A stretch of 64,000 bases of DNA, taken from the NCBI RefSeq assembly GCF_963682185.1, contig NZ_OY821667.1, positions 186,001 through 250,000 of the forward strand. Reading direction: 5' to 3'. Numbering within the stretch: position 1 is the first letter of the stretch; each line of letters opens with the position of its first letter. This stretch comes from an uncultured Cohaesibacter sp. (GTDB lineage Bacteria; Pseudomonadota; Alphaproteobacteria; Rhizobiales; Cohaesibacteraceae). The translations under genes were made by a program, and so were the position numbers. This document shows positions 44,340 to 61,495 of this stretch, in pieces. The notes beneath the pieces are model-generated. The model searched no databases. It saw only the letters and a list, made by a program, of their open reading frames with translations, and was not told where the DNA came from.

Positions 44340-45000
44340 AGATCCTCAGCTTGCGCCTTCAAACAGGTATCCCATAAACGCTTGCCGTTCGACGAGCTAG
44401 GCGCGCGCGCTCATAGTCCTTTGTCCATATTACACAATGGGGCATATGACGCGGCACAGGCAAACCATGGTCATGCATTGAGAAGCAGGCGCTTCAAAAC
44501 TCTCTTTCATCCATAGCCGCACACATCTCTATCGCTCCTAGCGATTGCTCCTGACAGGAGAGACGTAGCCGCCACCATTGGGGAGAACGCCTGTCGCACA
44601 GGAACACGCATATGACCGGAAAGAAATAGAAGACAATCTCTGAGCCTCTGCAAAGAAATAGAGATCGATTTTGTCCGAATAGCTTTCACCTCAGGAGCAA
44701 TAGAACGCACAAAAGCCATTGTGCATCTGTCACTTAAAGGGATGAAAGCAAAGGATTGATTGCTTCAATTTTAATGGATATCATCCTGACTCTAAAGACT
44801 CTTTAGACCATAACGTCAAACATGAGTACGCCCGCCCAATCGCCGCCCAAACAAATTTAGTTCCATAATATAGATTACGCGTCATTTAGATCGATTGTGT
44901 AGCTTTCAACTCCAACACTCTGAAAAGTCTACCTTCTTGCATTTTCCTACAAATACGCCCATCCTATTCATGAAAAACGTAACTGTAATTTTGGTGATAT
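44340..45000. other. Junction spacer: left edge of the genomic island
   Basis: I find no gene in these 661 bases. Two neighbouring hairpins (ATCGCT-CCT-AGCGAT, 44531-44545; CTCCT-GAC-AGGAG, 44548-44560) may end the metG-MBL transcript. A dyad, TCTAAAGACTCTTTAGA (44791-44807), overlaps a sequence partly repeated near 61.79 kb, the candidate attachment site. Base composition becomes visibly more A/T-rich after about 44,760 and stays so through the recombinase genes. Confidence 0.5.
44797..44817 (+). repeat. Left copy of imperfect direct repeat (candidate attL)
   Basis: It contains CTCTTTAG and CATAACG separated by AC and followed by one base and CAA. The copy at 61,788-61,812 has the same two words in the same order and orientation separated by GGAT. 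It lies about 185 bp before the first recombinase gene, the usual place for an attachment site. Confidence 0.4.
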
Positions 45001-46200
45001 ATGTATTTTTGGACTCCTCGGCTCATCAAGTTTCGTGACGGTGAACGCTTCGCAACATGTTTTGACAAAAATGGAATTCCTGCATATTACCCGACAGCCC
45101 TTGCTTTGGAATATCGATCTCTGAACCTGGCATCAAGCACGCTCCTTTCATATATGAAGCATGTTGCTCATTTTGAGCGCTGTTGCATCTACAATTCCGT
45201 CGACATCATCCGGAATATCGAAGCCGGCAAATACCCAACCGCCGCTGATGCAACGTTTCTTGCACAAACAGCCTCAGTTAACAGCAAAGCTCTTGCAAAT
45301 GCGATCTCACCAAATGTCTCTCGCATCAATGGTAAAAAATGGTCAAGAGCCGAGATGGTTAACAATCAAACCAAAGCCCAACGCATCACAGTGTTTGCCG
45401 CTCTCATTGATCTGGTTTGCCGAGCCTATGAAAGTCGGCAGTCAAAAGAAATCTTCTTCGGTTTGGCTAATCAGCGCGAACGCTTTCTTGAAAAACTTCT
45501 CGCTTTGCGCCCCAAAGTCCGGGATCTAAACCGCATCTCCAAAGGTCCAACACACCATCAATTGGGACGTCTAACCCGATTTATGTTGGATCACGGCCCG
45601 CATGATTGTGAAGGTGTAATATGGCAAAACCCCGCCCTGAACGAAAGAAACTGGGCAATTGCTCAAACCCTCTTCGAAACAGGCTTCAGAAACTCTGAGC
45701 TGCGCGCTTTGCGGGTCAAAGATGTCAATTTTGAACTCATGGAAATCCGTGTTTTTAGAAGACCCGATGACCCAGATGATCCTCGATTGCGTGAGCCAAA
45801 CGTCAAGACCTATGAGAAAGTCTATCCAATCTCGGACCGCCTCTGCATGTCCTTGGAAAAATACCTTCTGTCACATGGCGGTAATGCTGCAGACCGATCT
45901 GGTTCTCCCTTTTTCTTTCTATCTCACAGCAACCGAAACTTCGGCCAGCCAATAGCAAACGATACTGTAAATAGAATTGCTACAGATATAGGTCTTCACC
46001 TTGAAATTTTGAATCTGACACCACACCATTTTCGTCATCAATGGATCCAAAATTTAGCGGATTGGTCAATTCGAGAAAATATCGAACCTGCCGAGTTTGA
46101 TCGTTTTGCCAACATGTTGGGAGGATGGTCACTCCTTTCAAATATGGCAACCCAATATCGTGGCGATCAACTCACAAAATATGCATATAAAAAAGCCTGA
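45001..46200 (+). CDS. Tyrosine recombinase 1 of the island module
   Basis: This 399-residue site-specific recombinase has a C-terminal catalytic domain from about residue 190. Visible catalytic residues are Arg230 (TGFRNSELRALRV), His342-x-x-Arg345 (TPHHFRHQW), a Trp near 374 (LGGWS) in the His/Trp position and the probable nucleophile Tyr386 (ATQYRGDQ). The N-terminal part should hold the core-binding fold. It is the first gene of a coupled set of six and closest to the candidate left attachment site. It resembles the TnpA-type members of Tn554-like or trio systems in position; no specific family can be named from sequence by eye. Confidence 0.85.
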   Translation: MYFWTPRLIKFRDGERFATCFDKNGIPAYYPTALALEYRSLNLASSTLLSYMKHVAHFERCCIYNSVDIIRNIEAGKYPTAADATFLAQTASVNSKALANAISPNVSRINGKKWSRAEMVNNQTKAQRITVFAALIDLVCRAYESRQSKEIFFGLANQRERFLEKLLALRPKVRDLNRISKGPTHHQLGRLTRFMLDHGPHDCEGVIWQNPALNERNWAIAQTLFETGFRNSELRALRVKDVNFELMEIRVFRRPDDPDDPRLREPNVKTYEKVYPISDRLCMSLEKYLLSHGGNAADRSGSPFFFLSHSNRNFGQPIANDTVNRIATDIGLHLEILNLTPHHFRHQWIQNLADWSIRENIEPAEFDRFANMLGGWSLLSNMATQYRGDQLTKYAYKKA

Positions 46201-46221
46201 TGGTAGAACAGGAGCGCAATA

Positions 46222-47733
46222 ATGACATCTAATTTCCCCGTCTCCAATGACCTCCAGCTCCCCCTGTTTGAAACCCCTGCCCTGTCTGCCTCTGGCATCG
46301 AATTTGACCCAAACAAAGATTTCTGGAAACTGGACGGCACTGCCACGATCAATTTCAAGAAGCTCATAGGCACTTGTTCACCGCGCTTCTTCCAGAAGAC
46401 TAAATCTATCGCCAAAATCCTTGTTGAAACTGGAAACTCGCACAGCGCAAAATCAGCTTTGAGGCAATTCCTAAATTTGTCATTGGCTACATCACAAGCA
46501 CATTCATCAAACATTGATGTTATCGACTGTGAGAGTCTAGTTGCTTGGGTGACGGCCGGCAATAACAGGAATTACATTGCACAGCTCCACATTTTTACCA
46601 ATGTTGCCAAGACATTCGAAGCTAAACTTCTCACTGAAGAAGCTTACCACTATCTCGAAAACATGAAGCCTTCTCCAATAAACAATCAACTGGAGGCCGT
46701 GCAACTGTGGGATCCGACCAAAGGCGCGCTTAGGCCCGCTGAAGATCAATTGTTGGCTACCCTGATCAACTCGGCCTTCGCTGCAGGCAAAATGTCTCTA
46801 CGTGCTTTCTTCGTTATAAGGATGCTGAGAGGATTTGCAATGCGCCCCTCCCAACTGGCCGCAATGAAAGTGTCTGATGTCCGTGACGGAGACTCTGGCA
46901 TGCATATCCGCATCCCAATGGCCAAACAGCGTAACACACAATTACGCGGTGAGTTCATGCCATGGAAACCGGTTAGTGCTGGATTTGCAGATATCATTCG
47001 AACCTATCTTGCAGAAGAAGTCTATCCAGTTGCAACAATCGGCTCTCGGGAAAATGCTCCGTTATTCTGGACCGCCAAAATGCGCAAGGTGCAACCAACA
47101 GGATTTGACGGTTCCATCATTGGTCATGCTAACGCTGACAACATCACTGATATCTACCAATTGGCAATACATAATTTAAATGCCATTAGCCCTCTCACGG
47201 GGGAAAAAATGAAACTCAATCCGCGTCGCGAACGCCATACATATGCGACCCACTTGGCGATGAATGGAGCTCCAGCAGAAGAAATTGCTGTAAATCTCGG
47301 CCAAACACATGCCGGATCCTGCCAACCTTACATCGACGCCACAATTGGACACTTTCAATCCATCGAGAACGTCGTAGGGGCCCATTATGTGGCTGTTGGT
47401 GATCGCTTCATAGGCAATGTTGTTAGCGAAAATAAAGACAGCAATGAATTTATAATTGTAAATGACAAACTTTCCAATGTTGGATCATGTGGATCCAACG
47501 GCTGCAGCGCTGTAGATTGCGGTGTAGCACCCCTCGCCTGCTACACATGCCGAAACTTTAATGCGTGGGAAGAAGGTCCTCATCAGGAAATCCTTGACAC
47601 CTTGCTAGAAGAACAAATCAACAGGCGCAAAGATAACCATGCCGAATTAGCCGAAACAACCACAAATACGATCATTGCAATCAATGACCTGATTGAAAGA
47701 ATCAAACAAATTCGGGAGAAGCGCAATGCCTGA
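46222..47733 (+). CDS. Tyrosine recombinase 2 of the island module (divergent catalytic boxes)
   Basis: This is a 503-residue recombinase. Arg208 (FAMRPSQLAAMKVSDV), Arg338 (RERHTYATHLAMNG) and Tyr370 (CQPYIDA) fit the catalytic Arg, Arg and Tyr. The His of the HxxR box is Arg335, and the His of the following LGH box is Gln (NLGQTHAG), so it is degenerate and may need its partners. After the catalytic domain, Cys423, Cys428, Cys433, Cys440 and Cys443 form a probable zinc-binding tail before a helical end. AGGAG precedes the ATG, 21 bp after recombinase 1; it overlaps recombinase 3 by 8 bp. Confidence 0.83.
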   Translation: MTSNFPVSNDLQLPLFETPALSASGIEFDPNKDFWKLDGTATINFKKLIGTCSPRFFQKTKSIAKILVETGNSHSAKSALRQFLNLSLATSQAHSSNIDVIDCESLVAWVTAGNNRNYIAQLHIFTNVAKTFEAKLLTEEAYHYLENMKPSPINNQLEAVQLWDPTKGALRPAEDQLLATLINSAFAAGKMSLRAFFVIRMLRGFAMRPSQLAAMKVSDVRDGDSGMHIRIPMAKQRNTQLRGEFMPWKPVSAGFADIIRTYLAEEVYPVATIGSRENAPLFWTAKMRKVQPTGFDGSIIGHANADNITDIYQLAIHNLNAISPLTGEKMKLNPRRERHTYATHLAMNGAPAEEIAVNLGQTHAGSCQPYIDATIGHFQSIENVVGAHYVAVGDRFIGNVVSENKDSNEFIIVNDKLSNVGSCGSNGCSAVDCGVAPLACYTCRNFNAWEEGPHQEILDTLLEEQINRRKDNHAELAETTTNTIIAINDLIERIKQIREKRNA

Positions 47734-49567
47734 CATTAGCGTCGGAAGCATCATCCCCTTCAAGCCGCTCAGCACAGATGCCGAACTTATCCTCGATCAA
47801 TATATTGCAGAAGCTCAAAAGTCCCCTTTTATCGCGGCTCTAGGAATCGTTTGGAGCACACAAACCTGGGATCTCACTGAGGTTGCAACCCCCGACCGGT
47901 CAGGAGCGTATGTCCGCTTCACCTTTCCTGAGCTGTGTCCGAGATTCCTTGACTTTATAAAAGCTTATGTAATTCATGAGATCGCTTCCAATTTCCCTCG
48001 CAAATATCAAATCGGAAAATATTCGGCTCCAGCAAAAAATGCCAAATATGTGCAACTGGCAATGAATAAATTCAATGTAAGCAGCCCAGTCGATCTCACC
48101 CCTCAAATCCTCGATGATGCGATGAGTCTCTTTACGGGCAACGATAATACAAAAGAGCAAAATCGTTCAAAAGTCGGCTGGTTCGTCGATGTCTTACTCA
48201 AACATAGAATGTACAACAGACCTTATAAATGGTCACCTCCCAAGCAAGTCCGGAATATAACATCACGCAAAACCAAAAACCGCCTTAAAAGCAAATCCCA
48301 AGATAAAATACTCTCGACCGATGAACTGGATGCCGTAATCCAACTATTCAACCGCGCCTCAACACAAGAAGAGAAAATCGTTGGAGGAATCCTCGCCCTC
48401 CTATGTTGCGCACCCATGCGAGCTGAGGAACTACTACTCATTGCACGCGATGTAGACATCATGCTCGACCCAGGCGATAACCTTCAGTCAGGGCTTGTTT
48501 GGCGACCTAAAAAAGGTGGCATACCTGGCCTGAAATATGTTCCTTCCGGTATGGTCGATGTGGCCAAGCGCGCACTCAAAATGATCAAAGAAGAAACTCA
48601 AGAAGCTCATGATCTCGCAACCCATCTCATGGCAAACAATCCTGACTCAGTTCCCCACGAAATGCGTGCATTCAAACATTATCCATTCATGGATGAACAA
48701 AAAACTTTGCGGATAGACGAAGCCCTCTTCGTATATTTCCACGGAGATCGCCCCAAACCTATCCCATACAACTGGCTAGCACGGCGAATTACAACCACAG
48801 CAAATGCAGAAAGAAACCTTTTCCGAAAACTAGGAATTCTTTTGCCTGATGGATCTATTCCCAACATCAATACCCACAAATTGCGGCACTATCACAACAC
48901 CATCGCTGCTAAATGCAATATGTCAGAATTTGATCGTGCACGCTGGTCTGGCCGAAAAAACATGGCTCAAAATGCGGTTTATGACCATGAAACGCCGGAA
49001 GAACTAACAGCCCGAATTCGCACAAAACTCCATGGTAAAGCACCAATACGAGTGCCAAAAATCTTCAAAGAAAAAGAATTTGATTTAACAACAATTCGGG
49101 AGGCAATGCATTCAACCTCAGCTGGCTGGTGCTCAAGAAGTCTGAGACAAGATCCTTGCACAATGTTTGGAGCATGCCTGAACTGTCAGCATCTCGTATG
49201 CGTAAAAGGAGCCCAAGGCAAGCTGGAATACATTCAGCGTGACTTGGAACGCACCCAAAACCTTCTTCAACTTGCACAAAAGAAAAAATCTAATGGTCTC
49301 AAACTGCAAGATCGCTGGATTGATCAATACAAAAAGAAAATTGAGCGCCTGACACAGCTCACAACCATTTTATCCGATGACACAGTCGAAGATGGGTCTT
49401 TCATTATGTTGGCCGATGATCCCACGCTTGTTGCCTATAACCCCGTCATTGACTTTCTAGCCTCAGAAAATAGGCATAAGCTATCCTTTGTCGATGAAGA
49501 CGATCTGGTGGAAAATCATCTGCGCATAGATTGGGACAGTGACGATTTGGAAGATGACGATGACTGA
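47726..49567 (+). CDS. Tyrosine recombinase 3 of the island module
   Basis: This is a 613-residue recombinase. Catalytic residues are Arg232 (CAPMRAEELLLIARDVD), His384-x-x-Arg387 (NTHKLRHYHN) and Tyr419 (NAVYDHET), with a Trp in the RWSGRKN box. A Cys cluster (Cys478, 484, 487, 492; MFGACLNCQHLVC) and a coiled coil (about 497-550) form the C-terminal tail, ending in an acidic stretch. The size and tail recall TnpB of Tn554. An upstream TTG at 47693 exists, but the ATG at 47726 has GGGAG before it. It overlaps both neighbours by 8 bp, so translation is coupled. Confidence 0.87.
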   Translation: MPDISVGSIIPFKPLSTDAELILDQYIAEAQKSPFIAALGIVWSTQTWDLTEVATPDRSGAYVRFTFPELCPRFLDFIKAYVIHEIASNFPRKYQIGKYSAPAKNAKYVQLAMNKFNVSSPVDLTPQILDDAMSLFTGNDNTKEQNRSKVGWFVDVLLKHRMYNRPYKWSPPKQVRNITSRKTKNRLKSKSQDKILSTDELDAVIQLFNRASTQEEKIVGGILALLCCAPMRAEELLLIARDVDIMLDPGDNLQSGLVWRPKKGGIPGLKYVPSGMVDVAKRALKMIKEETQEAHDLATHLMANNPDSVPHEMRAFKHYPFMDEQKTLRIDEALFVYFHGDRPKPIPYNWLARRITTTANAERNLFRKLGILLPDGSIPNINTHKLRHYHNTIAAKCNMSEFDRARWSGRKNMAQNAVYDHETPEELTARIRTKLHGKAPIRVPKIFKEKEFDLTTIREAMHSTSAGWCSRSLRQDPCTMFGACLNCQHLVCVKGAQGKLEYIQRDLERTQNLLQLAQKKKSNGLKLQDRWIDQYKKKIERLTQLTTILSDDTVEDGSFIMLADDPTLVAYNPVIDFLASENRHKLSFVDEDDLVENHLRIDWDSDDLEDDDD

Positions 49568-49991
49568 AAAACAGCGAAAACATCTGAAGTCTCTTCAAAA
49601 AGCCCAAACTTGCGAATGGATAAAATCCCGGAGACACAAACCAACATGGGCTGATGTCACCACATTCATCCTCAAAGAATTCAATATTGATCGCAAAGAA
49701 AACACGGTTTGTCGTGACCCCGACTTGCGCAACGCCATGAAAGCACGAGCAAGTGTAACCCCTCCATCCCCAATCCTAGGCAAACCTACTACCAAAAAAC
49801 TTGAGGCCCTGATCGAAGAAAATGACAAACTTAAGGTCAGAATAGCAGAGCTAGAGGATCAGGTGCAGGCATTTACCGAAGAACGTATTGCGATGATAAA
49901 CTTTGCAAGCGCTCATCAATTTACTGAATCAGAAATCAAGCGCAGCCTTTTCCCAGTTGACCGCAATGCAACGGATATATCCAATGACTAA
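49560..49991 (+). CDS. Small coiled-coil protein of the recombinase module (TnpC-like position)
   Basis: This is a 143-residue unrecognised protein. The first 60 residues are basic and helical (TWADVTTFILKEFNIDRKENTV). About residues 78-110 form a heptad coiled coil (KKLEALIEENDKLKVRIAELE). In Tn554 the third transposition gene, tnpC, encodes a small protein of similar size and layout, and this gene holds the equivalent position after the TnpB-like recombinase. A role as a DNA-binding accessory or orientation factor is inference. It overlaps the preceding gene (ATGACTGA) and the next (ATGACTAA) by 8 bp each. Confidence 0.7.
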   Translation: MTEKQRKHLKSLQKAQTCEWIKSRRHKPTWADVTTFILKEFNIDRKENTVCRDPDLRNAMKARASVTPPSPILGKPTTKKLEALIEENDKLKVRIAELEDQVQAFTEERIAMINFASAHQFTESEIKRSLFPVDRNATDISND

Positions 49992-50457
49992 ACTCAATGG
50001 TGTGCAACGCGGAGCCGAAGTCTCAAAATCCTTTCAAACCTGGTTTGATGAGCGTCAGAAGCTTGGAGATGTGTCTGAATATCTAAATGCGCGGGGACGA
50101 CTGAACAAATCATCCATTGCAGTCGAGCTTGGTTTTGCCCGCTCTAACTTCAACACCAATCCCGCCTTAAAAGAAGCTTTAGAAATCGCGGAAGAAACAC
50201 TCTGCGCGGCAAGCAATTTGGTCGATGTCGCAAAACCATTGCGCGAAGCTAACGCAGCAAGAGAGAGGGCAAACGACAAAGCTAAACTGTCATCTGCCGA
50301 AAGTAGCCGCTTAATGGAACGCATTGTCAGCCTTGAAGCTGAAAACCGAAATCTTAAAAACCGTCTGGCTCAATTGGAGCTTCGTGAAAAAGCCTCACAG
50401 GACTTCAATCTTCTTGCTGAAGCTCTGGAGAAGATGCATGAAGATTCAAATCAGTAA
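49984..50457 (+). CDS. Second small helical protein of the recombinase module
   Basis: This is a 157-residue protein. The N-terminal half (FQTWFDERQKLGDVSEYLNARGRLNKSSIAVELGFARSNFNTNPALK) looks like a helix-turn-helix that reads as a DNA-binding accessory. The pattern, a short W-containing helix, a G-x-L turn, IA-x-x-x-GF and NPxLK, resembles from memory the small proteins coded beside gamma-mobile-trio recombinases; this is unchecked. The C-terminal half is a coiled coil (about 95-140). It overlaps the RecD-like gene by 20 bp. Confidence 0.65.
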   Translation: MTKLNGVQRGAEVSKSFQTWFDERQKLGDVSEYLNARGRLNKSSIAVELGFARSNFNTNPALKEALEIAEETLCAASNLVDVAKPLREANAARERANDKAKLSSAESSRLMERIVSLEAENRNLKNRLAQLELREKASQDFNLLAEALEKMHEDSNQ

Positions 50458-52606
50458 CGTGCGCAGAAATGGCTTCCTATCCGCTCGTGAGCTGAATAGT
50501 GATGGAACCTATGTCCAGCGCGATAGAAACCTGTGCTGCGTCTTTCCCAACACCTTCTCCGGCGCAGTTCTGCCTGGATCAATCTGGCAAGTAGATGGCC
50601 CGATAGTTGAAAATAGAATCAACGTGAGCGGCAAGATCTTCGTCGAAGACCTGATGAAATGCGAGATAGTTGAGTTGGAAATGATCTCAACTAACCTCCT
50701 TCAAATTTGGCTATCCAAGAACATCAAGAAAGTTGGCCCACAAAGAGCTAGACGCTTTGCCAATTATCCAGACTTCATCGCCCTTGCCCAATCCGCAGAC
50801 ACCAATGAACTTCTTAAAATACCCACGATGACAGCAGAAATGGCTCAAGAGATCATCGTGAAATTCCCGAGTGAGGACCAAATCGAGACAATCAATTGGT
50901 TCTCTCAGAAATCTATCCCATTCAAAGTGGCATATCGCATGTGGGAGGTTATGGGGCCTGATGCAATCAGTTATGTCCAACAGAATCCATTTGACCTCAC
51001 AAAGTTCGGCGTAAGATTTAAAGTCTGCTTTTCCCTGGCAGAAGATCTGGGCTTTGCATCAGATAGCGAAATCGTGTTGGCCGCAAAAGCTGCTGACGTC
51101 GTGAACCACATCTGTGCGACCACAGGCTCCACAGCAGTCAGTCATGACAAGTTCAATACAGAATGTGCCAGGAGGGGATATAATACCCCTACAAAGCTTT
51201 TAAACGCCGCTGGAGCCCAACGATCCCTTGGCTTGATCGATGGGAAAGTGATCACAGAATTGAATTACATTGTTGAGAACGAAGTGGCCAACATTCTCAA
51301 ATCATCCGCACAGCGCATCGATGGAGAAGGCCACAATCTCGCTGATTGGGAAATAGGACTATCCGACAGAAAAATCATTCTTCAAATTAACTCCTATCAA
51401 AGGCGTATCCCATACAAGCTAACTCAAAATCAGCGAGGCACAATCCTCGGAGCCATTAGATCAAAAGTGGCCCTTATCTCTGGTGGAGCAGGAACTGGCA
51501 AAACCACCATCCTCAAAGGCATCATACATATCCTGGACCGCATATCTCCTGGCATCAATATCACCCAACTTGCCCTAAGCGGACGGGCCTCACAGCGCAT
51601 GGCTGAAGCGACTGGAAGGCCCGCATCAACAATAGCCAAATTTATTACAGACATCCGCAATATGGCCGAGGAAAAAAGGCCTCAGCATTGTGTAGTCATC
51701 ATCGATGAAGCCTCAATGGTCGACATTTATAGCATGCACAAATTATTGAGCTTAATGCATCCGTCCACTCGATATCTCCTGGTAGGTGACGATCAGCAAT
51801 TGCCACCAGTTGGTGGTGGGTTGGTATTCCATGCCCTGTTGGATTCAGAAGTTTTTCCAACCTTCAATCTAATGACCGTGCAACGACAATCTCAGGACAG
51901 CTTAATACATCAATTTGCAACCGCTATCCGAAATAATTCCTATTACCATCTACCTCATAGCAGGAATCCCTGCGGCATTGATTGTGCCATATCGCCTACG
52001 GATCGCATTATCGAAATTTGGGAACATGATAGCTACGACACAATGATCCTTTGTCCCACCCGTAACGGCCCAGTCGGGGTGCGCAAGCTCAATCAAGATA
52101 TCCAGTCCAGAGTGGGCAACAATCGCCCTGCCATCCCTTATTTTGACCAAGAAGAAGGGATGATTGAATTTGTCTCCAGCGAAGGTTCACGATTCCGCCT
52201 GGATGATCCAATTTTAATCACCAAGAATTCCTATGATATCGATGTGCGAAATGGCGAAATTGGAAGATTGGTCGCCATCTTCGATGAACCCAATGAAGAC
52301 GGTGCTTTTGGCATCCTGCTGCTAAACAACCGACAGCTCAGCGTCGACCTATCTCTTTTGCAAAAAATGGAATTGGCCTACGCTGTATCAATCCACAAAA
52401 GCCAAGGATCGCAATGGCGAAACACTATTGTTGCAATTGACCACACATCAGATCGGATGTTGGACAAAACCCTTCTCTACACAGCAGTGACCCGCGCCAC
52501 ACATCGGTGCGTTCTTGCTTGCGACGACGAACAAATACTGCATCAGGCAGCCACAGGTGGTTCAAAGGCACTTAACCGGGATGTGGCACTTAGGTTCTTT
52601 TTGTAA
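50438..52606 (+). CDS. RecD2-like SF1 helicase of the island module
   Basis: This is a 722-residue helicase. An N-terminal OB-like region and helix-hairpin-helix repeats (WLSKNIKKVGPQRARRFANYP, TMTAEMAQEII) precede the motor. Walker A (GGAGTGKTT) is near residues 348-356, Walker B (VVIIDEASMVD) near 425, motif III (LLVGDDQQLPPVGGG) and motif VI (LYTAVTRATH). This is the layout of RecD2/TraA-type 5'-3' helicases. The frame opens at 50324, but GGAG before the ATG at 50438 sets the start. It closes the coupled six-gene set. A helicase inside a tyrosine-recombinase operon is unusual and may act on the excised circle. Confidence 0.87.
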   Translation: MKIQISNVRRNGFLSARELNSDGTYVQRDRNLCCVFPNTFSGAVLPGSIWQVDGPIVENRINVSGKIFVEDLMKCEIVELEMISTNLLQIWLSKNIKKVGPQRARRFANYPDFIALAQSADTNELLKIPTMTAEMAQEIIVKFPSEDQIETINWFSQKSIPFKVAYRMWEVMGPDAISYVQQNPFDLTKFGVRFKVCFSLAEDLGFASDSEIVLAAKAADVVNHICATTGSTAVSHDKFNTECARRGYNTPTKLLNAAGAQRSLGLIDGKVITELNYIVENEVANILKSSAQRIDGEGHNLADWEIGLSDRKIILQINSYQRRIPYKLTQNQRGTILGAIRSKVALISGGAGTGKTTILKGIIHILDRISPGINITQLALSGRASQRMAEATGRPASTIAKFITDIRNMAEEKRPQHCVVIIDEASMVDIYSMHKLLSLMHPSTRYLLVGDDQQLPPVGGGLVFHALLDSEVFPTFNLMTVQRQSQDSLIHQFATAIRNNSYYHLPHSRNPCGIDCAISPTDRIIEIWEHDSYDTMILCPTRNGPVGVRKLNQDIQSRVGNNRPAIPYFDQEEGMIEFVSSEGSRFRLDDPILITKNSYDIDVRNGEIGRLVAIFDEPNEDGAFGILLLNNRQLSVDLSLLQKMELAYAVSIHKSQGSQWRNTIVAIDHTSDRMLDKTLLYTAVTRATHRCVLACDDEQILHQAATGGSKALNRDVALRFFL

Positions 52607-53030
52607 CCGCAATATTTATTCCTTAACCACAAATTCTTCAGCTCGCGAGACGACAATCTGGAAGACTTTCCAAATCTGGCCGAAATCTCGGTGGGATATC
52701 CCGTCACTCGAACAAAAACGTGCAATTGGTTTTGATTGGTGTTTGGACAATCCAAGGCAGCAGTGCAAAGTGCCGAAAGTGAGATGCGGTAACCAACCCT
52801 ATCAAAAAACGATAAAAGCGGGAGAACTGAACCGAAAACTAGATATATTTGCGTGATATCTGTTTGGCCGCGTCTCGGTTCGAGCGGACCGCCAAGTGTC
52901 AAGCCGAACTGAGACGCATTGGCCCATCGGGCCAATTTCTAAGAAATGGGCGATATCTATCTTCTGGTAACGCGGATTCCCGGTTTTTGTACCGCCAGTG
53001 ATGACGGAGTTTCTAGAAGCTGTCGCCTCA
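52607..53030. other. Junction between the mobility module and the defence cargo
   Basis: It holds three successive dyads (52,870-52,947) and a 24-codon toxin-gene remnant (52,957-53,031). I see no intact gene. The minus-strand frame at 52,543-52,935 has no PIN-domain or other toxin features. Confidence 0.5.
52870..52947. repeat. Three consecutive dyads at the end of the recombinase module
   Basis: Arms of 13 bp (GCGTCTCGGTTCG, 52870-52882, with 52905-52917, one G-U) are followed by TTGGCCC-ATC-GGGCCAA (52919-52935) and ATTTCT-A-AGAAAT (52935-52947). No T-runs follow, so terminators are possible but recombinase-binding sites or an element end are as likely. Confidence 0.6.
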
Positions 53031-53031
53031 T
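52957..53031 (-). pseudogene. Truncated toxin-gene remnant (VapC-like start)
   Basis: An ATG overlaps the stop of the Phd gene by one base (TGATG), the normal layout of a toxin behind its antitoxin. It reads MRRQLLETPSS and reaches a TAG after 24 codons. The start resembles the common MRxLLDTH opening of PIN-domain toxins, with the catalytic Asp changed to Glu. Everything after it is missing, right where the dyad-rich module boundary begins. Confidence 0.4.
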
Positions 53032-53267
53032 CATTCCTTCATGTCGAACATGGCTGCCAGTTCGTCATCTCCATCATGGATACCTTCGCCCATTGAAATA
53101 CCGGCTTCCTTGTAGAGGCCCAACCTGCAAGGATTGGGATCAACCTCGTATTTGATAAGTCGCACGAGCGGCTCACCCGCTTTGGTGATAATCACTTCTT
53201 CGCCGGCAACGCTTCTCTCGACAAGCTCCGAGAGTTTGGCTTTTGCTTCGAGAAGATTGACTTCCAT
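53031..53267 (-). CDS. Phd/YefM-type antitoxin, apparently orphan
   Basis: This is a 78-residue antitoxin. The N-terminal fold (VNLLEAKAKLSELVERSVAGEEVIITKAGEPLVRLI) is the Phd/YefM DNA-binding domain. The C-terminal arm (GISMGEGIHDGDDELAAMFDMKE) is the toxin-neutralising part seen with VapC partners. AGAGGTG precedes the ATG. The partner toxin, expected immediately downstream on this strand, is only a 24-codon remnant. It may now be an anti-addiction or regulatory gene; it lies downstream of the HigA-type gene in the same direction. Confidence 0.85.
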   Translation of the reverse strand: MEVNLLEAKAKLSELVERSVAGEEVIITKAGEPLVRLIKYEVDPNPCRLGLYKEAGISMGEGIHDGDDELAAMFDMKE

Positions 53268-53324
53268 GTTACACCTCTGAATTTCTCTGTGCTATTTCGC
53301 ATTCCGACAGTGATGACGGGCAGG

Positions 53325-53609
53325 TCATTTGACTGCATCGCGCCGCAGTTCCAAAAGATCATAATCAGATTGCAGCCCGAGGAAAAAGCCCTCAGACAGA
53401 CCAAAGTAGCGAGTAAATCGTCGATCCATATCTGCAGAAATCGCTCGTTTTCCAAGAACGATCTCGTCAATTTGGCTGCAAGGTGCATGAACGGCTCGTG
53501 CGAGATCGTCCCGGCTCAGTTTCATAGGCTTCAGAAACTCTTCCAGCAAAACTTCACCAGGATGAGGGTTTGGCAAATGATCCGCCGGTATTTTCGATGA
53601 TTTCGGCAT
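53325..53609 (-). CDS. HigA-type XRE antitoxin, apparently orphan
   Basis: This 94-residue protein has the HigA pattern NPHPGEVLLEEFLKPMKLSRDDLARAVHAP, then QIDEIVLGKRAISADMDRRFTRYFGLSEGFFLGLQSDYDL. The frame opens upstream at 53735, but GAAGGA before the ATG at 53609 and the family start place the true start there. HigB toxins usually precede higA; none is present, and the gene sits 43 bp behind the Mrr gene instead. It may act as a transcription factor for the restriction gene, by analogy with HigA autorepression; that is inference. Confidence 0.82.
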   Translation of the reverse strand: MPKSSKIPADHLPNPHPGEVLLEEFLKPMKLSRDDLARAVHAPCSQIDEIVLGKRAISADMDRRFTRYFGLSEGFFLGLQSDYDLLELRRDAVK

Positions 53610-53652
53610 TGCTCTGTCCTTCTTCGCGCCGGGAACGCCTTGTCGGCCGGTT

Positions 53653-54585
53653 CTATCCGTCTTCAGAAAAGAAGTCCTCGTCCAGGCGTTGAACCTGAAT
53701 GGTGCGATAGGCCCGGGTTCCCACACCATGTTCAATCATCAGCTCCGCCAAACGAACCCCGTCTATTTGTATCACGCGTTGTGGCAGGCTTCTCGTATAT
53801 TTCGTCGCACTGTCAGTGAAGGATGAGGTGGTCACGAAAACACCTTTTGTTGCGCCGAAGCCAACCAGAGAGCCAACAAACGCCTGCATATCAGGCCTTC
53901 CGATCTTGTTCGACGAAGCATGCCTCTTGGCCTGAACATATATGCGATCAAGGCCCAGTCGATCTTCATTAATGACGCCGTCCACGCCACCATCCCCAGA
54001 TCTGCCCAATTGTTCTGCTGCGTTTTTATGAGACCCGCCATATCCCATGGCAATGAGAAGATCAACGATTACCTGCTCAAAGAATGCTGGAGAATTCTCC
54101 CGAATTCGATCAAGTAATTCGGTTTGAAGAGCCGAGTTAAGGGCTGCAAAGGCATCTTCAATCTGCTCCTCTGGGGTCGATGCTTGTTTCGCTGTATCGT
54201 CATGATATTTCGAACGTGTGGAGGCAGCATTGCCTTGCTTCTTGTTTGCCGCATGGTAAGCGGCAAATTGTGGGATGGACAAAAGGTGTTGATAGTCCAG
54301 GCTCTGCGGATTTGTTGCCAGCAGTCGTTTGCCTGCATCGGACGCGATGAAACGTCCTCGTGCTGGACAATCAACCAATCCAGCTTTGTGCATATAATAC
54401 TTCGCCCAGTGTATCCTATTTTTGAGAATACTTTGGCCGCCACTCTGCAGCATTCTTTCGCATTCTGCAGCTGACAGTTCAAAGTCGACAGCAATCTTCT
54501 CGGCAAGAGGCGGAACCCGTTGTTCCGCCTGAGCCGCATAACGCAAGACCGGCAGCATTAATGATTGATAGCCTGGAATGGTCAT
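53653..54585 (-). CDS. mrr: Mrr-type restriction endonuclease
   Basis: This is a 310-residue type IV-like restriction protein. The N-terminal winged-helix domain (about 1-95; LPVLRYAAQAEQRVPPLAEKIA) is the Mrr_N fold. The catalytic PD-(D/E)xK domain has Glu170 (FFEQVIVDLLIAMGYGG), Asp202 (GDGGVDGVI) and Gln218-x-Lys220 (IYVQAKR). Mrr cuts methylated or otherwise modified foreign DNA. It heads a minus-strand operon with the HigA-type and Phd-type genes. A small coupled frame overlaps its start by 4 bp. Confidence 0.92.
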   Translation of the reverse strand: MTIPGYQSLMLPVLRYAAQAEQRVPPLAEKIAVDFELSAAECERMLQSGGQSILKNRIHWAKYYMHKAGLVDCPARGRFIASDAGKRLLATNPQSLDYQHLLSIPQFAAYHAANKKQGNAASTRSKYHDDTAKQASTPEEQIEDAFAALNSALQTELLDRIRENSPAFFEQVIVDLLIAMGYGGSHKNAAEQLGRSGDGGVDGVINEDRLGLDRIYVQAKRHASSNKIGRPDMQAFVGSLVGFGATKGVFVTTSSFTDSATKYTRSLPQRVIQIDGVRLAELMIEHGVGTRAYRTIQVQRLDEDFFSEDG

Positions 54586-54704
54586 CTTGCCGTGCGCTTA
54601 TGGTCTTGCGATTCCAATGATTTTTGACACGATGGTCTGCTTTGGCCTTTTACACGAGACCATGCTGTTTCAGTTGATTTTACCTTGAGATTCCAGCTCG
54701 ACAT
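54582..54704 (-). CDS. Possible 40-residue leader frame coupled to Mrr
   Basis: An ATG at 54704 with AGGGGG 5 bases before it opens a 40-codon frame (MSSWNLKVKSTETAW...). It ends in an ATGA overlap with the Mrr start. The ribosome site and overlap suggest it may be translated to couple Mrr expression. It has no recognised relatives and is basic. It could equally be chance; low confidence. Confidence 0.3.
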   Translation of the reverse strand: MSSWNLKVKSTETAWSRVKGQSRPSCQKSLESQDHKRTAR

Positions 54705-54717
54705 TGCGCCCCCTACT

Positions 54718-54775
54718 CTTCTCAATCCAAGGAAATGGTCACCAAGAATGACTTGGTGACCGGGGAGTTGAGAAG
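54718..54775. repeat. Nested inverted repeat upstream of Mrr
   Basis: An inner perfect 10-bp stem, GGTCACCAAG (54737-54746) with CTTGGTGACC (54752-54761), lies inside a second pair, CTTCTCAA (54718-54725) with TTGAGAAG (54768-54775). It lies within the presumed Mrr leader. It could be a folded leader, a regulator site or a recombination site. Confidence 0.6.
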
Positions 54776-55063
54776 CCGCACGAAGACGACCGCTACAGCC
54801 TTTAAGCCGGAGCTCTGAACATGCGCTGAAGCCTCCCCGACCAAAGATCGAGGAGATGTCATTTCGGCCGACATCGGCCGCTTCGTGAGGGGTTCTCACG
54901 CCCCGAGATGGTGAATATTCCATCCTGCTGGCAACTTAATATGTCTTGGATAATTGTGAAAGGGGAATGATCAGAAAGATGGGTACGTTAAATGCCTATA
55001 TCAGCATCCATTCATCGCGGTTAACACTCTCCGAAAAATCCACGAAACATCACCGCAATAATA

Positions 55064-55115
55064 TAAGGGGGCACTTTTGCACGCCGTTTACCCCAACAGA
55101 GGCGTCAAGTTTCAA
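55064..55115. mobile_element. IS21-family-like terminal fragment
   Basis: The sequence GGGGGCACTTTTGCACGCC, then GTTTACCCC and GCGTCAAGTTTC, resembles from memory the repeated ends found next to IS21-type elements. No istA/istB genes are present. It would be a solo decayed end between two defence operons. Confidence 0.3.
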
Positions 55116-55269
55116 TCCTGATGAACTGTAACGAGCATTGCCTCATCGAACCGACAAGGCAACTCTTTTGATTGCACGAAGCACGGCTACAGTTTGATCG
55201 CCGACATGGCTCCAAAGTGCGGCTGCTCATTGAGATTCAATGATTACCGGTCCTTACTATGTCGCTTAG

Positions 55270-57009
55270 TCAAAAAGTCACAGCCTCGAATTTCTCAAGT
55301 AGGAAGCTCGCAAGGCCTGGACCTTCAAAATAGAAACCGATCTCGTCCAGTGGATTGTCTTCCGAGCCCGACTGAGAACCCCAATTTAAGGTGCTGACTA
55401 CGACATGGTCTTGATCCCAGACAAGGAACTTTGCGTGTAATTGCGGTTTGGGCACACCTGAGAGCTCGACGATGCCATGCAAACGCTTCTTGTGTTTTGA
55501 CACATGGCCACGTTTTACGGGACCAGATCGCCGGGAGTAGTAAATTCGAACATCATCAAGCCGCCGACCGGCAATCTCGGCCGGATCAAACAAAGCCGGC
55601 ACCATATTGGCTCCAACTCTATTTGTGCAGCACACGAAGCGTTCCTGCGCCTGATGTGCTGCCACTCTCAGAAGACGCTCGTGATCAGCCGCATGCAGTA
55701 TTGTCAATCGAGCCATCGAAGGTCGCTCGTCAGCGGACGACAAAAGCCTAAATTTCTGGCGCCTCAGTTCTGAAGAGATGAATTGAAGTGTTTCCACGGA
55801 GCGACTGGCCTCCGAGAGTTTTGCGACGATCTCGCGCAACAAATCCAAACCGATCGCTACAGCTTGAGATTCACGCAGCTCCGCGGAAACCTCAACGGCC
55901 GAAAACGGTGAAGACAGCCAGTTGCAGGATCCCATGACTAAAACGACACCATCCTGGCCGTCGTCCGCTGCTAGGAACTTAGCGTGACTGCCGACAGGAT
56001 CCCTGTGAACCAAAAGATACCCTCTCGTCTGCCGAACCTTTGAGAGCCTCAGGTAGAGCTCTTGCATCGCGGCTGCATTCTTGGCTCTGTCAAGCGACGT
56101 ACCGAAGAACAAGTGGCATCTAACACCGCGTCGACAGGCATCTTCGAGCGCGCGCCAAATACGCTCTCGGTTCTCGATGCCTATTTCGTCAGACTGCGAC
56201 GCGACAAACGTTGAAAGGACAAACACATGCGACTTTGCGGTGCCCACAATTTCTTCAAAACGCTGTAAATGCTGTTCAGCGCCAACAATGAGGTTACTAC
56301 TGCCGAAGGATGTTTCAATAGAAAGAGATTCGGGCGGCTTCGGAGCTGCTGCCGTGGGCAAAACACCGGTTTTTATCGTCGCCTTAAGCGCTTTTACCAG
56401 TTGGTCGCTGGCTCCTTGGGGCAGAATGCCGTCATTGACATCATCGAGGTTTAAAACCAAGAATTTGCGTTCTAAAAACGAACTATTCGCCTGAACGCCC
56501 CTCAGCCATTCTCCCGGTCGAAGTGTGCCTGCCAGGAACTGGCTAACACGTTGCATCATTGAGTGGTCTGTTTCGGGAGCTTCGATTTTAGGGAAGGCCA
56601 CGATCGCTCCACTGTCCGGCAGCTTTGATACTGGGATTATGTCTACATCTCTAGTCCTGAAAACTGATAGTCCGACCTTCTCGAAAACTATGCTAATGCC
56701 AATTTCTCGGTCAGATTTTCGTTCAGGCAGTGCCCGTCCTGAACGAATGAAGTCGTTTCCAACACTGCTTGTTGCTAGAACCGGCTGCCGAGACAGCCGA
56801 ACTTCAACCAGACCGAACTGCATTAGGCGAGCGACTGTGGAACTGACAACCTGCCGCGGGATATGTAAATTTCCAGCAACGTTGGCGATAGTACCGGGAG
56901 TTTGATCGAGCGACAATAGCACCATTTCCTCTATCGGGCTCCAACCCCAGATCCGTTGAACGATGCCTGGTGCGCGATATTGCCATGCCGGAATGTAGAT
57001 ATTTTTCAT
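55270..57009 (-). CDS. mkoB: Mokosh type I PLD-domain nuclease-like protein (MkoB)
   Basis: This is a 579-residue protein. An N-terminal winged helix (about 29-72; PGTIANVAGNLHIPRQVVSSTVARLMQFGLVEV) is followed by two phospholipase-D-type HKD half-sites: His342-x-Lys344 in SHAKFLAADDGQD (then MGSCNW) and His525-x-Lys527 in LHAKFLVWDQD (then STLNWGSQSGSEDNPLDE). The two form one active site of PLD-family nucleases. It overlaps the helicase gene by 4 bp (ATGA). A kinase-like/helicase protein plus PLD protein is the published type I Mokosh architecture. Loss of either His would abolish nuclease function; both are present. Confidence 0.82.
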   Translation of the reverse strand: MKNIYIPAWQYRAPGIVQRIWGWSPIEEMVLLSLDQTPGTIANVAGNLHIPRQVVSSTVARLMQFGLVEVRLSRQPVLATSSVGNDFIRSGRALPERKSDREIGISIVFEKVGLSVFRTRDVDIIPVSKLPDSGAIVAFPKIEAPETDHSMMQRVSQFLAGTLRPGEWLRGVQANSSFLERKFLVLNLDDVNDGILPQGASDQLVKALKATIKTGVLPTAAAPKPPESLSIETSFGSSNLIVGAEQHLQRFEEIVGTAKSHVFVLSTFVASQSDEIGIENRERIWRALEDACRRGVRCHLFFGTSLDRAKNAAAMQELYLRLSKVRQTRGYLLVHRDPVGSHAKFLAADDGQDGVVLVMGSCNWLSSPFSAVEVSAELRESQAVAIGLDLLREIVAKLSEASRSVETLQFISSELRRQKFRLLSSADERPSMARLTILHAADHERLLRVAAHQAQERFVCCTNRVGANMVPALFDPAEIAGRRLDDVRIYYSRRSGPVKRGHVSKHKKRLHGIVELSGVPKPQLHAKFLVWDQDHVVVSTLNWGSQSGSEDNPLDEIGFYFEGPGLASFLLEKFEAVTF

Positions 57010-60000: not shown

Positions 60001-60434
60001 AGTGCTAAGGCTTCGGCAATTCGCTTGATATTACTCCAGAACGCGACTCTACTGCCACTGGTCAAGAATCGGCCTTGCTTCGCCCTCCTCCGCGCAGTAC
60101 CCGCAACCGGACTGCCTGGATCGACCATGACGATGGCGATTTCCTCGGCGTCCTCAGCAATCTCCAATACCTCTACCAGAACCTCACGAGCCTGTCTTGA
60201 TGAGAGAACTCGTCGAATTCGCCTCAAACCTCGAGCGATAATGGCTTTTAAATCGTCGTCGAGTGTTGTGCCACTCTTTCTAAATAAACGGACCAAATAC
60301 GGCTCACCGTCGTCATAACCCGTAGCCAATCGAAGATGCGAATCCCACAGGCCTTCGATGCGGGCAAGCGAGTCTTCCGCAAAATCAAAACGTGCCTCCA
60401 AAGATGCTCTGTTGCTCTGTTTGTACTTTGCCAT
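57006..60434 (-). CDS. mkoA: Mokosh type I helicase with kinase-like domain (MkoA)
   Basis: This is a 1142-residue protein. The N-terminal 270 residues resemble a protein-kinase fold (FWSNIKRIAEALALCHSAGIVHGAVSQ), but the catalytic HRD reads His-Gly-Ala (153-155) and the DFG position reads Arg-Leu-Gly, so it looks like a pseudokinase. The rest is an SF1 AAA_11/AAA_12 helicase of the COG1112 type. Walker A GPPGVGKT is at 613-620, Walker B FIEEAA near 767, motif III GDHNQLSPFDAEE, SPYSGQVSYLRRLLKP, TSDSFQGSEADV and motif VI NVLLSRAKHK near 1065-1080. It is first in the operon; an AT-rich TATAAT lies before the gene. Confidence 0.85.
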   Translation of the reverse strand: MAKYKQSNRASLEARFDFAEDSLARIEGLWDSHLRLATGYDDGEPYLVRLFRKSGTTLDDDLKAIIARGLRRIRRVLSSRQAREVLVEVLEIAEDAEEIAIVMVDPGSPVAGTARRRAKQGRFLTSGSRVAFWSNIKRIAEALALCHSAGIVHGAVSQYTIFSQSDDSVDYRLGGIEACVHIADGSIGESGHLLRTSGAVSFRQDWIDLARVIASILDLDGKNSPSLLTIERRMIDRLANPPQFQLFDGSVVLEELQQIITELGRVGSSSDGELILYPSRGALQSDLPSLSSGTIPATDSVAIAQFVTEDLLSAGVRLVPEDQDNVRILTDLAVYNVKIVSDTVGMIKNAHKRHANDWMLGAKDIINRIHLSRNRASAEQRVQNLGPGVKRWRDFSANVCTSGPVNDEPMWFALILLEAFTLLREQFRLYPVEVLSLPNTEQDVVWLLSRDDAPRDQQRETMKLRPAAEALRRELRYDDGKANWTVSKSSNLATGGERLPELSYEGRDFINGKVAFAFTTNITVPAGQFLYLRPRKDKGADRAIRRRLQNIVAARSNLELLRALDDPTQVAMDEALRAIAAPGAPPADAEMDPSKVEAWTSIVAGRSINVVVGPPGVGKTFLISHLIKSILGQTPDARVLVSAQNHETLIHMEEELRKFLPEESTIVVRVERSRVGEEESTLRRDTVGLLRSIAKPNAKNAAVMQDQLSRINQSLSPVDQSEQAMAERSLRDTDNLVLRSSDVTLATTSSSVLEEMIADGEQFDWVFIEEAARANGAEMIGALLLGNRRVMIGDHNQLSPFDAEERQKFYTPERSEELLKGAKEKLSTISDLPDEIDVALDALNADHLLLADVLAISSRFEEPFKSIADREAERTNDTNRPSSIANMLREQSRMHPVISDLVSNTFYNGTLVSSARVEQRESVVEAINGFPNSPIVVLDMPSLSVLKRRAFEHSVQRSYRNESEAVALLAALKELRPILKAGKKRPTLAVLSPYSGQVSYLRRLLKPQIDVANRTLFGFASPRDDGKFVFTSDSFQGSEADVIAASLVRNNVLVGSRALGFMKNPQRLNVLLSRAKHKLILAGSRQFIRNAVDGIDPDSLKEDFGFLRRMLEQIEELSKAHYQEAGGGVTIVTVDEDGSLPR

Positions 60435-60649
60435 CTGCTGTCCAATCTAAATTTATACAAATTATAATTGGATTCGCGTTTTAGTTGTATATTTTTCGGA
60501 ATTTGCCGGAATTTTCTGTACGTAGACAAGCAAATCATTTTTAACTTCCAAAAACAAAACCCTGAGTTTGACTTAAATCTAAGACAATCTTTGGTTATCT
60601 TCATGTGTTGTTGAAAGCAAGTTTTCTGATGAGTAGGAGGAGTCGATAA

Positions 60650-61041
<392 letters not shown>

Positions 61042-61043
61042 TC

Positions 61044-61081
61044 ATAGACAAATCGTCTATTAAGGATGCGTTTTACGATTT
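61044..61081. promoter_or_regulatory. Possible res/operator region of the truncated resolvase
   Basis: ATAGAC (61044-61049) with GTCTAT (61055-61060), and AAATCGT (61050-61056) with ACGATTT (61075-61081), form overlapping inverted repeats 24-61 bp upstream of the resolvase start. This is where subsites for resolvase binding normally lie. Confidence 0.4.
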
Positions 61082-61413
61082 AAGAGACACTGTATCGTGC
61101 CAGCAGGGAAGTGTCTACTATGTTATAAATTTTAAGACTCCACACATGCGAATATTGGACTTCAGTCTCAACTATGGGTGGCCAAAATTCTTAGCTGAGA
61201 CAAAAGCATCGGGCATGGATCGCAAAACTCTTGATTTTTGGAGGAAAAATGCGATATATGCCTCATAGCTTATGAGGTGAGAACGCCCTCCTCATGCACC
61301 AATTAGTTATTTAGTTGGTAAAGTAGTCGAAAGACGAAGAGATACAGGAGTGTAGATGGCTGCGGCTGCTACCTGAAAACTGGGATCCTGTCATAAGCAA
61401 TAAATTCTAGCAG

Positions 61414-61443: not shown

Positions 61444-61495
61444 TTATTTTACAACAAATAGCGTTTTCCTTTCTCGCCTTTGGTCAATTTTTCTC

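What the first reader, a model, noticed from the sequence alone, without database searches (positions are those of the whole stretch)
45001..52606. Six-gene translationally coupled recombinase-helicase mobility module
Three dissimilar tyrosine recombinases, two small coiled-coil proteins and a RecD2-like helicase lie in one run. Successive overlaps are 8 bp (47726-47733, 49560-49567, 49984-49991) and 20 bp (50438-50457); only recombinases 1 and 2 are separated (21 bp). Tn554 (TnpA/B/C), RIT trios and gamma-mobile-trio islands share parts of this layout, but a helicase as sixth coupled gene is not something I can match to a named family. It could be a new branch of trio elements in alphaproteobacteria.
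Basis: partly seen in the sequence, partly recalled or inferred. Interest (0 to 1): 0.75.

Follow-up and report, generated by a model that had tools for sequence, protein, structure and literature searches.

The report
GInt island with a portable helicase
The six joined genes are the moving machinery of a known kind of bacterial genomic island (a GInt), extended by a two-gene helicase unit that we also find behind very different island-moving machines, which points to a shared and so far untested step in how such islands move.

Summary
In detail: six coupled ORFs at 45001-52606, overlaps as stated. [quoted passage not shown] An empty relative shows a 39.8-kb island (window 44874 to 20.7 kb past the window end), bounded by an imperfect 8-bp core and inserted in a dif-like site near the replication terminus. 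Cargo includes an Mrr-type enzyme and a Mokosh type I defence pair. Genes 5-6, a VPA1267-family adaptor and a RecD2-like helicase, are a separate cassette: present in 12 of 64 surveyed GInts, always both, scattered over the ginC tree (13 gains or losses), while the helicases group together (92/87). The same pair ends annotated gamma-mobile-trio (GMT) operons. Between one GInt/SE-like locus and two GMT loci it is 93% identical in DNA from the adaptor's start codon to just past the helicase stop, although nothing upstream matches. I infer, untested, that the pair serves an unwinding/replication step of transposition; cargo (defence) is the main rival. New variant of a known kind.

The parts
44874..64000 (.). 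Part of the integrated 39.8-kb island inside the window; it continues 20.7 kb past the window end (right core at G000:C1 270704-270711)
   Evidence: Empty site in relative G002: L065 1-952 matches window 43914-44881 and L065 941-19001 matches 84700-102780 of window plus following DNA; G001, G003 and G013 also lack it, though their DNA between 44340 and 44881 differs; G009 carries the same left end at 96.9%
44874..44881 (.). attL core ATTACGCG (right copy and empty site read ATTATGCG), inside one arm of a dif-like sequence
44882..45000 (.). Left end of the element between core and ginA
45001..46200 (+). ginA: tyrosine recombinase, 399 aa
   Evidence: Phage_integrase 9.1e-14; GmtY model only 19 bits, cut-off 340; R230 and R345 invariant, K269 and H342 in 90% or more of 17 rows
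46222..47733 (+). ginB: tyrosine recombinase, 503 aa, with C-terminal Cys motif
   Evidence: NF041502 241 bits, cut-off 350; K235, R336, R338, Y370, C423, C440, C443 invariant in 15 of 15 rows
47726..49567 (+). ginC: large tyrosine recombinase, 613 aa, Cys4 motif and predicted long C-terminal helices
   Evidence: R232, K263, H384, R387, Y419, C469, C478, C484, C487 invariant in 56 of 56 rows of A10; in the earlier 15-row alignment all but H384 are invariant; model matches XerH-difH, E 5e-6
49560..49991 (+). ginD: small HTH/coiled-coil protein, 143 aa
   Evidence: Position and profile shared by 64 of 64 survey loci with enough downstream DNA; W30 and L130 invariant in 45 rows
49984..50457 (+). 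VPA1267-family adaptor, 157 aa: N-terminal HTH-like bundle and one long helix (coiled coil)
   Evidence: NF040697 62.5 bits, below its cut-off of 90; AlphaFold2 pLDDT 92.6, pTM 0.57; profile match to GinD/GmtX rows, probability 93.5
50438..52606 (+). RecD2-like helicase, 722 aa, helicase motifs intact (Walker A K355)
   Evidence: TIGR01448 356 bits, cut-off 500; invariant motif columns in 12 rows; groups with other cassette helicases
53034..53267 (-). Cargo: Phd-family antitoxin
   Evidence: TIGR01552 40 bits, cut-off 20.8
53325..53612 (-). Cargo: HigA-family antitoxin
   Evidence: TIGR02607 83 bits, cut-off 47.7
53653..54585 (-). Cargo: Mrr-type modification-dependent restriction enzyme
   Evidence: Mrr_cat 3.2e-33; mREase_IV 343 bits
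55270..57009 (-). Cargo: MkoB of Mokosh type I
   Evidence: PADLOC MkoB 295 bits
57006..60434 (-). Cargo: MkoA of Mokosh type I
   Evidence: PADLOC MkoA 727 bits
60730..61020 (-). Serine resolvase N-terminal fragment
   Evidence: PF00239 67 bits, matched to 82 of 145 profile positions

Best explanation
This is the recombination operon of a GInt-type island in a Cohaesibacter genome, extended by a portable two-gene helicase cassette. Shown by sequence: ginABCD order and catalytic residues, both ends of a 39.8-kb island against an empty site, defence cargo, and a cassette (VPA1267-family adaptor plus RecD2-like helicase) that stands behind very different recombinase cores. From the literature: all four gin genes are needed for excision and integration of one tested GInt; SEs, and some GInt strains, were reported to form circles without an empty site, as if copied out. 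Inferred: GinA, GinB, GinC and GinD cut and join at the 8-bp core; the adaptor, a relative of GinD, brings the helicase (5'-3' polarity recalled for RecD2) to that complex; the helicase unwinds the nicked element so that it can be copied out or a long circle completed. The island sits in what is probably the chromosome's dif site.
For: GInt core: with PMC5385486 (parts 1-3 of 6 read). Ends and empty site. Cassette: 12 of 64 survey GInts have both genes and none has one alone; 10 of 12 genomes with a VPA1267-family match have the helicase downstream, one (L042) with 1.5 kb between; 28 cassette helicases are one side of a branch against 19 other RecD-type helicases, 92/87, 93% of bootstrap trees; on the ginC tree the cassette needs 13 gains or losses, at least 10 forced; L106 and L150 helicases are 0.10 changes apart but their GinC about 0.6, with rows lacking the cassette between them; 93% DNA identity over 2605 and 2641 bp between GInt/SE-like L036 and GMT loci L060 and L061, from the first base of the adaptor gene to 5 and 41 bp past the helicase stop, with no DNA match upstream. 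A RepB-type primase gene precedes the pair on a Rhodovastum plasmid. Copy-out model of SEs: passages of PMC9345347 and PMC10214605. dif-like site.
Against: No functional data for the pair. 52 of 64 GInts lack it, so GInts can do without. The 13 changes may be losses as well as gains, and the label is somewhat clustered (6 of 500 shuffles as low). The window's helicase is on a long branch (2.18) without a firmly supported place and its adaptor is below the family cut-off. The core is 8 nt, 7 of 8 matching, shorter than the 10-17 nt published for GInts, and no inverted repeat beat shuffles. Other mobile fragments lie inside (60730-61020; Xer-like integrase piece just past the window, L066 381-1079), so the island may be composite. 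The helicase also matches RecD-type models in the defence library.
Confidence: 0.7

Rival explanations
1. The adaptor-helicase pair is cargo, for example an anti-phage or plasmid-conflict system carried in the first cargo slot of these islands.
For: GInts and GMT islands carry defence cargo (PMC10121019 passages; PMC12039261 section 3 part 1; this island). The helicase matches RecD-type defence-library models and the adaptor has one weak DrmC hit. 52 of 64 GInts lack the pair.
Against: It stands directly behind GinD/GmtX (27 pairs, median distance 0), behind several recombinase cores, while the genes after it differ between the annotated loci read. The adaptor resembles GinD. No system-level defence search was run.
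Confidence: 0.25
2. It is a GMT island (gamma-mobile-trio) in an alphaproteobacterium.
For: VPA1267-family protein and helicase as in two annotated GMT operons; weak GmtY score for gene 1.
Against: GmtY 19 bits against a cut-off of 340, no PF13009 (the family of the GMT integrase) and no GmtX hit; genes 1-4 keep the ginABCD plan of the survey loci.
Confidence: 0.03
3. [quoted passage not shown]
For: SEs have a four-gene plan with two recombinases, a recombinase-fold protein and a coiled-coil auxiliary protein (PMC10214605 passages).
Against: The published search found SEs in Gammaproteobacteria and none in Alpha- or Betaproteobacteria. Plasmid relatives of the window's gene 3 sit behind ssb, a GInt target. 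The island is 39.8 kb; the published medians are 34.9 kb for GInts and 15.7 kb for SEs. No SE or GInt reference protein was at hand for a direct test.
Confidence: 0.1
4. The boundaries reflect a composite of two or more elements, and the GInt proper is shorter.
For: Fragments of other mobile genes inside; attL and attR cores share 7 of 8 bases only.
Against: Four relatives (G001, G002, G003, G013) lack the whole segment; the same core is at both junctions and in the empty site of G002; AT-rich 3' end, 36% GC in the last 300 bp.
Confidence: 0.2

Closest known systems
GInt / Tn6571-family island (Bardaji et al. 2017, PMC5385486)
   Same: ginABCD plan at the 5' end, variable cargo, short AT-rich 3' end, imperfect direct repeats, restriction and defence cargo; three plasmid relatives sit behind ssb
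   Different: Extra VPA1267-helicase cassette behind ginD; insertion in a dif-like site; 8-nt core instead of 10-17-nt repeats; alphaproteobacterial host, a class where one published search found no ginC-ginD block (PMC10214605)
Gamma-mobile-trio (GMT) islands
   Same: Operon ends in VPA1267-family protein and RecD-like helicase; defence cargo
   Different: Core is GmtY, a PF13009 integrase and GmtX; no match over cut-off here. The GMT paper itself is not held
SE, strand-biased circularizing integrative elements (PMC9345347, PMC10214605, passages)
   Same: Four-gene plan with a coiled-coil auxiliary protein
   Different: Published hosts Gammaproteobacteria; the word helicase does not occur in the two main texts
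Tn554 (TnpA, TnpB, TnpC)
   Same: Recombinases plus a small TnpC-type protein
   Different: Two recombinases instead of three (PMC10214605 passage); no sequence comparison made
RIT elements
   Same: Three coupled tyrosine recombinases
   Different: 315-410 aa each, 34-bp terminal inverted repeats, three genes only (PMC10214605 table)
IMEX elements such as LME-1 (PMC9765430, passages)
   Same: Insertion at dif leaving a modified dif at one end
   Different: IMEX use the host Xer enzymes; this element has three recombinases of its own

Membership tests
GInt | Four-gene operon ginABCD: three tyrosine recombinases, then a small HLH-type protein | tested here: met
   Order, sizes and profiles as in the survey loci; no published GinA-D reference sequence was at hand for direct alignment
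GInt | Recombinase catalytic motif in GinA, GinB and GinC | tested here: met
   GinB has R in place of the first H of box II; GinC is complete in 56 of 56 rows, against the statement that its first Arg is missing
GInt | Tripartite island: gin operon, cargo of 2.5-70 kb, AT-rich 3' end | tested here: met
   39,838 bp; last 300 bp 36% GC
GInt | Flanking imperfect direct repeats of 10-17 nt | tested here: inconclusive
   8-nt core, 7 of 8 matching
GInt | Excision as a circle; all four genes essential | not testable with these tools
   Needs an experiment
GMT | GmtY, GmtZ (PF13009 integrase in the loci read) and GmtX | tested here: not met
GMT | VPA1267-family protein and RecD-like helicase behind the trio (seen in the GMT operons read here, not a published definition known to me) | tested here: met
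   the window's adaptor is below the family cut-off
SE | IntA-Tfp-IntB-Srap, Tfp without RHRY, 6-bp spacer between imperfect inverted repeats, no empty site | tested here: inconclusive
   No inverted repeat beyond shuffles; gene 2 keeps K, R, R and Y; reference proteins and empty-site behaviour not testable
RIT | Three recombinases of 315-410 aa and 34-bp terminal inverted repeats | tested here: not met
   399, 503 and 613 aa; no such repeat at the ends
Tn554 | TnpA, TnpB and TnpC, two recombinases | tested here: not met
   Three recombinases; no Tn554 sequence compared
IMEX | dif mimic used by host XerC/XerD | tested here: inconclusive
   dif-like attB, but own recombinases

The most novel reading that the evidence does not exclude
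A VPA1267-family adaptor and a RecD2-like helicase form a stand-alone, exchangeable replication/unwinding module shared by otherwise very different multi-recombinase islands (GInt, SE/GInt-like, GMT and at least one more core). It supplies the missing copy-out step of tyrosine-recombinase transposition, with GinD-like HTH/coiled-coil proteins as interchangeable adaptors.
Probability: 0.4. Interest if true: 0.8.

Novelty: new variant of a known kind. Interest (0 to 1): 0.6.

Why it matters
GInts, SEs and GMT islands spread defence, resistance and toxin genes, yet how they move is open: some leave no empty site, as if copied out, and the main texts of the three GInt/SE papers I opened do not contain the word helicase. 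A helicase cassette that is exchanged between very different cores, in the same operon position, is a concrete candidate for the missing step and can be tested by deletion in a minimal element. It also links element classes that sequence searches keep apart, and shows a GInt occupying a probable dif site.

Tried and rejected
GMT, RIT and Tn554 membership: not met (see Membership tests). Terminal inverted repeats: none beyond shuffles. Viral-contig scan with gene 3: 9 stretches matched a pattern, none encoded a relative. PDB fold match for the adaptor: 56 matches listed with E up to 10, none below 1. PDB sequence match for gene 3: none. dif as a general GInt target: not supported; of 81 loci L093 (21 of 28) is the only outlier, the window's hybrid site scores 17 like six others (none of its 20 controls reached it), the median is 15, and the eight other places scoring 19 or more in the 79 survey loci scanned are not at GInt left ends. 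A chromosomal paralogue as source of the helicase: the own genome has only two weak pieces in another frame. GMT paper: not held, so I cannot say whether it describes the helicase.

Rows dropped and limits. Cassette count: 16 of 80 survey loci with under 3.2 kb downstream were left out, among them L089, which has both genes, and L074, cut inside the adaptor. The survey query (A2, 8 rows) holds three carriers of the cassette (window, L043, L044), which may tilt the sample; 80 of 259 relatives were kept. Absence of the cassette means no profile hit at E 1e-4. GinC alignment A10 took 56 of 88 candidate rows; L036, L040, L041 and L063 are not in it, and in the 15-row alignment that holds them H384 is not invariant. 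Helicase tree: rows under 600 aa, outgroups outside 550-900 aa left out; L157 and L160 were labelled as cassette rows because an adaptor stands before them. ginC tree: L036, L063, near-duplicates and rows under 480 aa left out; quick tree without bootstrap, where the window joins L123 by two long branches. The skew change brackets the site only in G011; it lies 0.2-0.6 Mb away in G014 and 0.4-0.7 Mb in G000. G008 and G017 have only two-mismatch matches, of a form that recurs elsewhere in the genus.
Full report
Observation. The six ORFs and their overlaps are as reported. Family searches give Phage_integrase for genes 1 and 2; for gene 3 no Pfam or NCBIfam family over cut-off and a weak phage integrase match (2.5e-5); coiled-coil noise for gene 4; the VPA1267 family (62.5 bits, cut-off 90) for gene 5; RecD2 (356 bits, cut-off 500) for gene 6.

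What the core is. Gene 3 as query matched 60 plasmid records, all below 60% identity. In five annotated records read, the order is recombinase, recombinase, large recombinase, then a small protein. In the Klebsiella record the small gene is neither annotated nor hit by the profile, and the Pasteurella record starts inside the module. In three of the five (Klebsiella, Xanthomonas, E. coli) the module stands directly behind ssb. A scan of genome contigs gave 80 loci (the best of 259 relatives). With profiles built here, 60 of 60 loci with at least 3.2 kb upstream have genes 1 and 2, and 64 of 64 with at least 3.2 kb downstream have gene 4. [quoted passage not shown] NF041502 appears to mark ginB: the second recombinase of the GInt in HTCC5015 (L093) scores 488 bits, over the cut-off of 350. 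PMC10121019 (passages) places GInt in the Tn6571 family and finds it carrying defence systems in E. coli. PMC10214605 (passages) found no ginC-ginD block in Alphaproteobacteria, although PMC5385486 reports homologues there; by host the window, L085 and L123 are alphaproteobacterial. The host genus Cohaesibacter is inferred from L074, 99.8% identical over 3387 bp. In the class sample, gene 3 matched 3 of 289 genomes, the own one included.

Catalysis. GinC is described as lacking the first arginine (PMC5385486) or the catalytic tyrosine (PMC10214605 passage). In 56 of 56 aligned rows R232, K263, H384, R387 and Y419 are invariant; in the 15-row alignment with more distant rows all but H384 are. 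The model of the window's protein (pLDDT 80, pTM 0.60) matches XerH on difH (E 5e-6) and Cre (E below 1e-3), with target-normalised TM-scores up to 0.56. Genes 2 and 3 also carry a C-terminal Cys motif.

The element. Relative G002 has the empty site: its sequence matches window 43914-44881 and then continues 39.8 kb further on. Cores: left ATTACGCG at 44874-44881; right and empty site ATTATGCG. G001, G003 and G013 lack the island too, though their neighbouring intergenic DNA differs; G009 has the same left end. The last 300 bp are 36% GC against 49.6% for the island. Cargo in the window: Phd and HigA antitoxins, Mrr-type enzyme, Mokosh type I pair (MkoA 727, MkoB 295 bits), a resolvase fragment. 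Beyond the window: two transglutaminase-type proteins, a Crp-type regulator, two Band_7 proteins, a citrate transporter-type protein and an integrase piece.

The target. The empty site reads, on the reverse strand, AATTCGCATAATCTATATTATGGAACTA, 19 of 28 identical to E. coli dif as I remember it; the best score in 124 kb of the window's own genome is 18, at four places including attR. Its 17-base part occurs exactly in 15 of 18 genomes of the genus, with one mismatch in G009 and with two in G008 and G017; 34 of 41 genomes searched have a match with up to two mismatches, 5 of 41 have one to the reversed control pattern. In six genomes of other families (G023, G024, G033, G034, G039, G040) it also lies beside the phnP-like gene. 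GC skew changes sign around it in G011 (site 0.70 Mb; +0.11 at 0.55, -0.01 at 0.85 Mb) and 0.2-0.7 Mb from it in G014 and G000. I take it as the probable dif site. A second GInt (L093, no helicase) has a 21-of-28 match some 130-150 bp before ginA. This is no general rule: the median best score upstream of ginA in 81 loci is 15.

The cassette. Genes 5 and 6 occur together or not at all in 64 survey GInts: 12 have both, 0 one alone (L089, excluded for a short flank, also has both). Of 398 genomes of the phylum 12 match VPA1267, 4 over the cut-off, and 10 of the 12 have the helicase downstream. GInt adaptors reach the family cut-off in L106 (180 bits) but not in L085 (34 bits) or the window. The pair also ends two annotated GMT operons: GmtY, PF13009 integrase, GmtX, VPA1267 family, AAA family ATPase. 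In L064 the record's start cuts the helicase, and in L062 helicase pieces are separated by an IS66-type gene. In the tree of 47 helicases the 28 cassette rows are one side of a branch against 19 plasmid and chromosomal RecD-type rows (92/87; 93% of 200 bootstrap trees), with the window on a long branch. On the ginC tree the cassette needs 13 gains or losses for 18 carriers among 72 rows, at least 10 forced by supported branches; shuffles need 16.2 on average and 6 of 500 are as low, so the label is mildly clustered but far from a single origin with the core. L106 and L150 helicases are 0.10 changes apart, their GinC about 0.6. The sharpest case: L036, whose recombinases are of the window's type (R1-R3 58-68% identical to Photobacterium L063), shares 93% DNA identity with GMT loci L060 and L061 from the first base of the adaptor gene to 5 and 41 bp past the helicase stop, with no DNA match upstream and protein identities there of 16-28% over the parts that align (one five-residue overlap apart). 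L036 and L063 may be SEs by host and sizes; I had no SE reference. A third core (L037) carries the pair at 79-88% identity.

Adaptor and helicase. The adaptor is predicted as an HTH-like bundle and one long helix (pLDDT 92.6, pTM 0.57), without a significant PDB match. Its profile aligns with that of gene 4 over 55 columns (probability 93.5, E 2.3e-7, 11% identity); one of the 13 rows of that profile is GmtX. The helicase profile matches the RecD2-type structure 3e1s (1.7e-84; species recalled: D. radiodurans).

Mechanism. [quoted passage not shown] Three of seven GInt strains gave no empty site (PMC10214605 passage). A helicase recruited by a GinD-like adaptor would fit this step. On the Rhodovastum plasmid a RepB-type primase gene stands directly before the pair. 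This is inference; the cargo reading remains the main rival. In print: the main texts of PMC5385486, PMC9345347 and PMC10214605 do not contain the word helicase; VPA1267 occurs in none of the 20 papers listed of 30 found; a search for RecD-like with tyrosine recombinase gave 10 papers, none on such islands by title (listing only); the GMT paper is not held.

Verdict. GInt membership is well supported though not tested against a reference sequence. The helicase cassette as a portable unit is supported by sequence. Its function is a hypothesis.

Noticed in passing
window 55270-60434: Mokosh type I pair (MkoB, MkoA) next to an Mrr-type enzyme, as cargo of the island
   Followed up: partly
window 53034-53612: Phd- and HigA-family antitoxin genes near each other; I did not look for toxin partners
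   Followed up: no
L106 7194-21950: Two six-gene modules in tandem in Paraburkholderia elongata; the second helicase runs off the locus end
   Followed up: no
L157 7728-11304: RepB-type primase gene directly before an adaptor-helicase pair on a Rhodovastum atsumiense plasmid, with two large ORFs without Pfam match upstream
   Followed up: partly
L093 6954-6981: dif-like sequence (21 of 28 to E. coli dif from memory) shortly before ginA of a GInt in gamma proteobacterium HTCC5015
   Followed up: partly
window 47726-49567, alignment A10: GinC keeps the full tyrosine-recombinase catalytic set in 56 of 56 rows, against statements in two papers
   Followed up: yes
L037, L038, L039: Adaptor-helicase pair behind other gene sets: an ORF of 1114 or 1128 aa without Pfam match in L037 and L038, and ORFs of 607, 650 and 360 aa in L039; none matches a named trio
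   Followed up: partly
L247 (P. aeruginosa plasmid pCHUAC_01_IMP): Three recombinase-type genes and a small gene lying between two aminoglycoside phosphotransferase genes; described only
   Followed up: no
L066 381-1079 (just past the window end): Xer-like integrase piece of 233 aa inside the island, a possible remnant of another element
   Followed up: no
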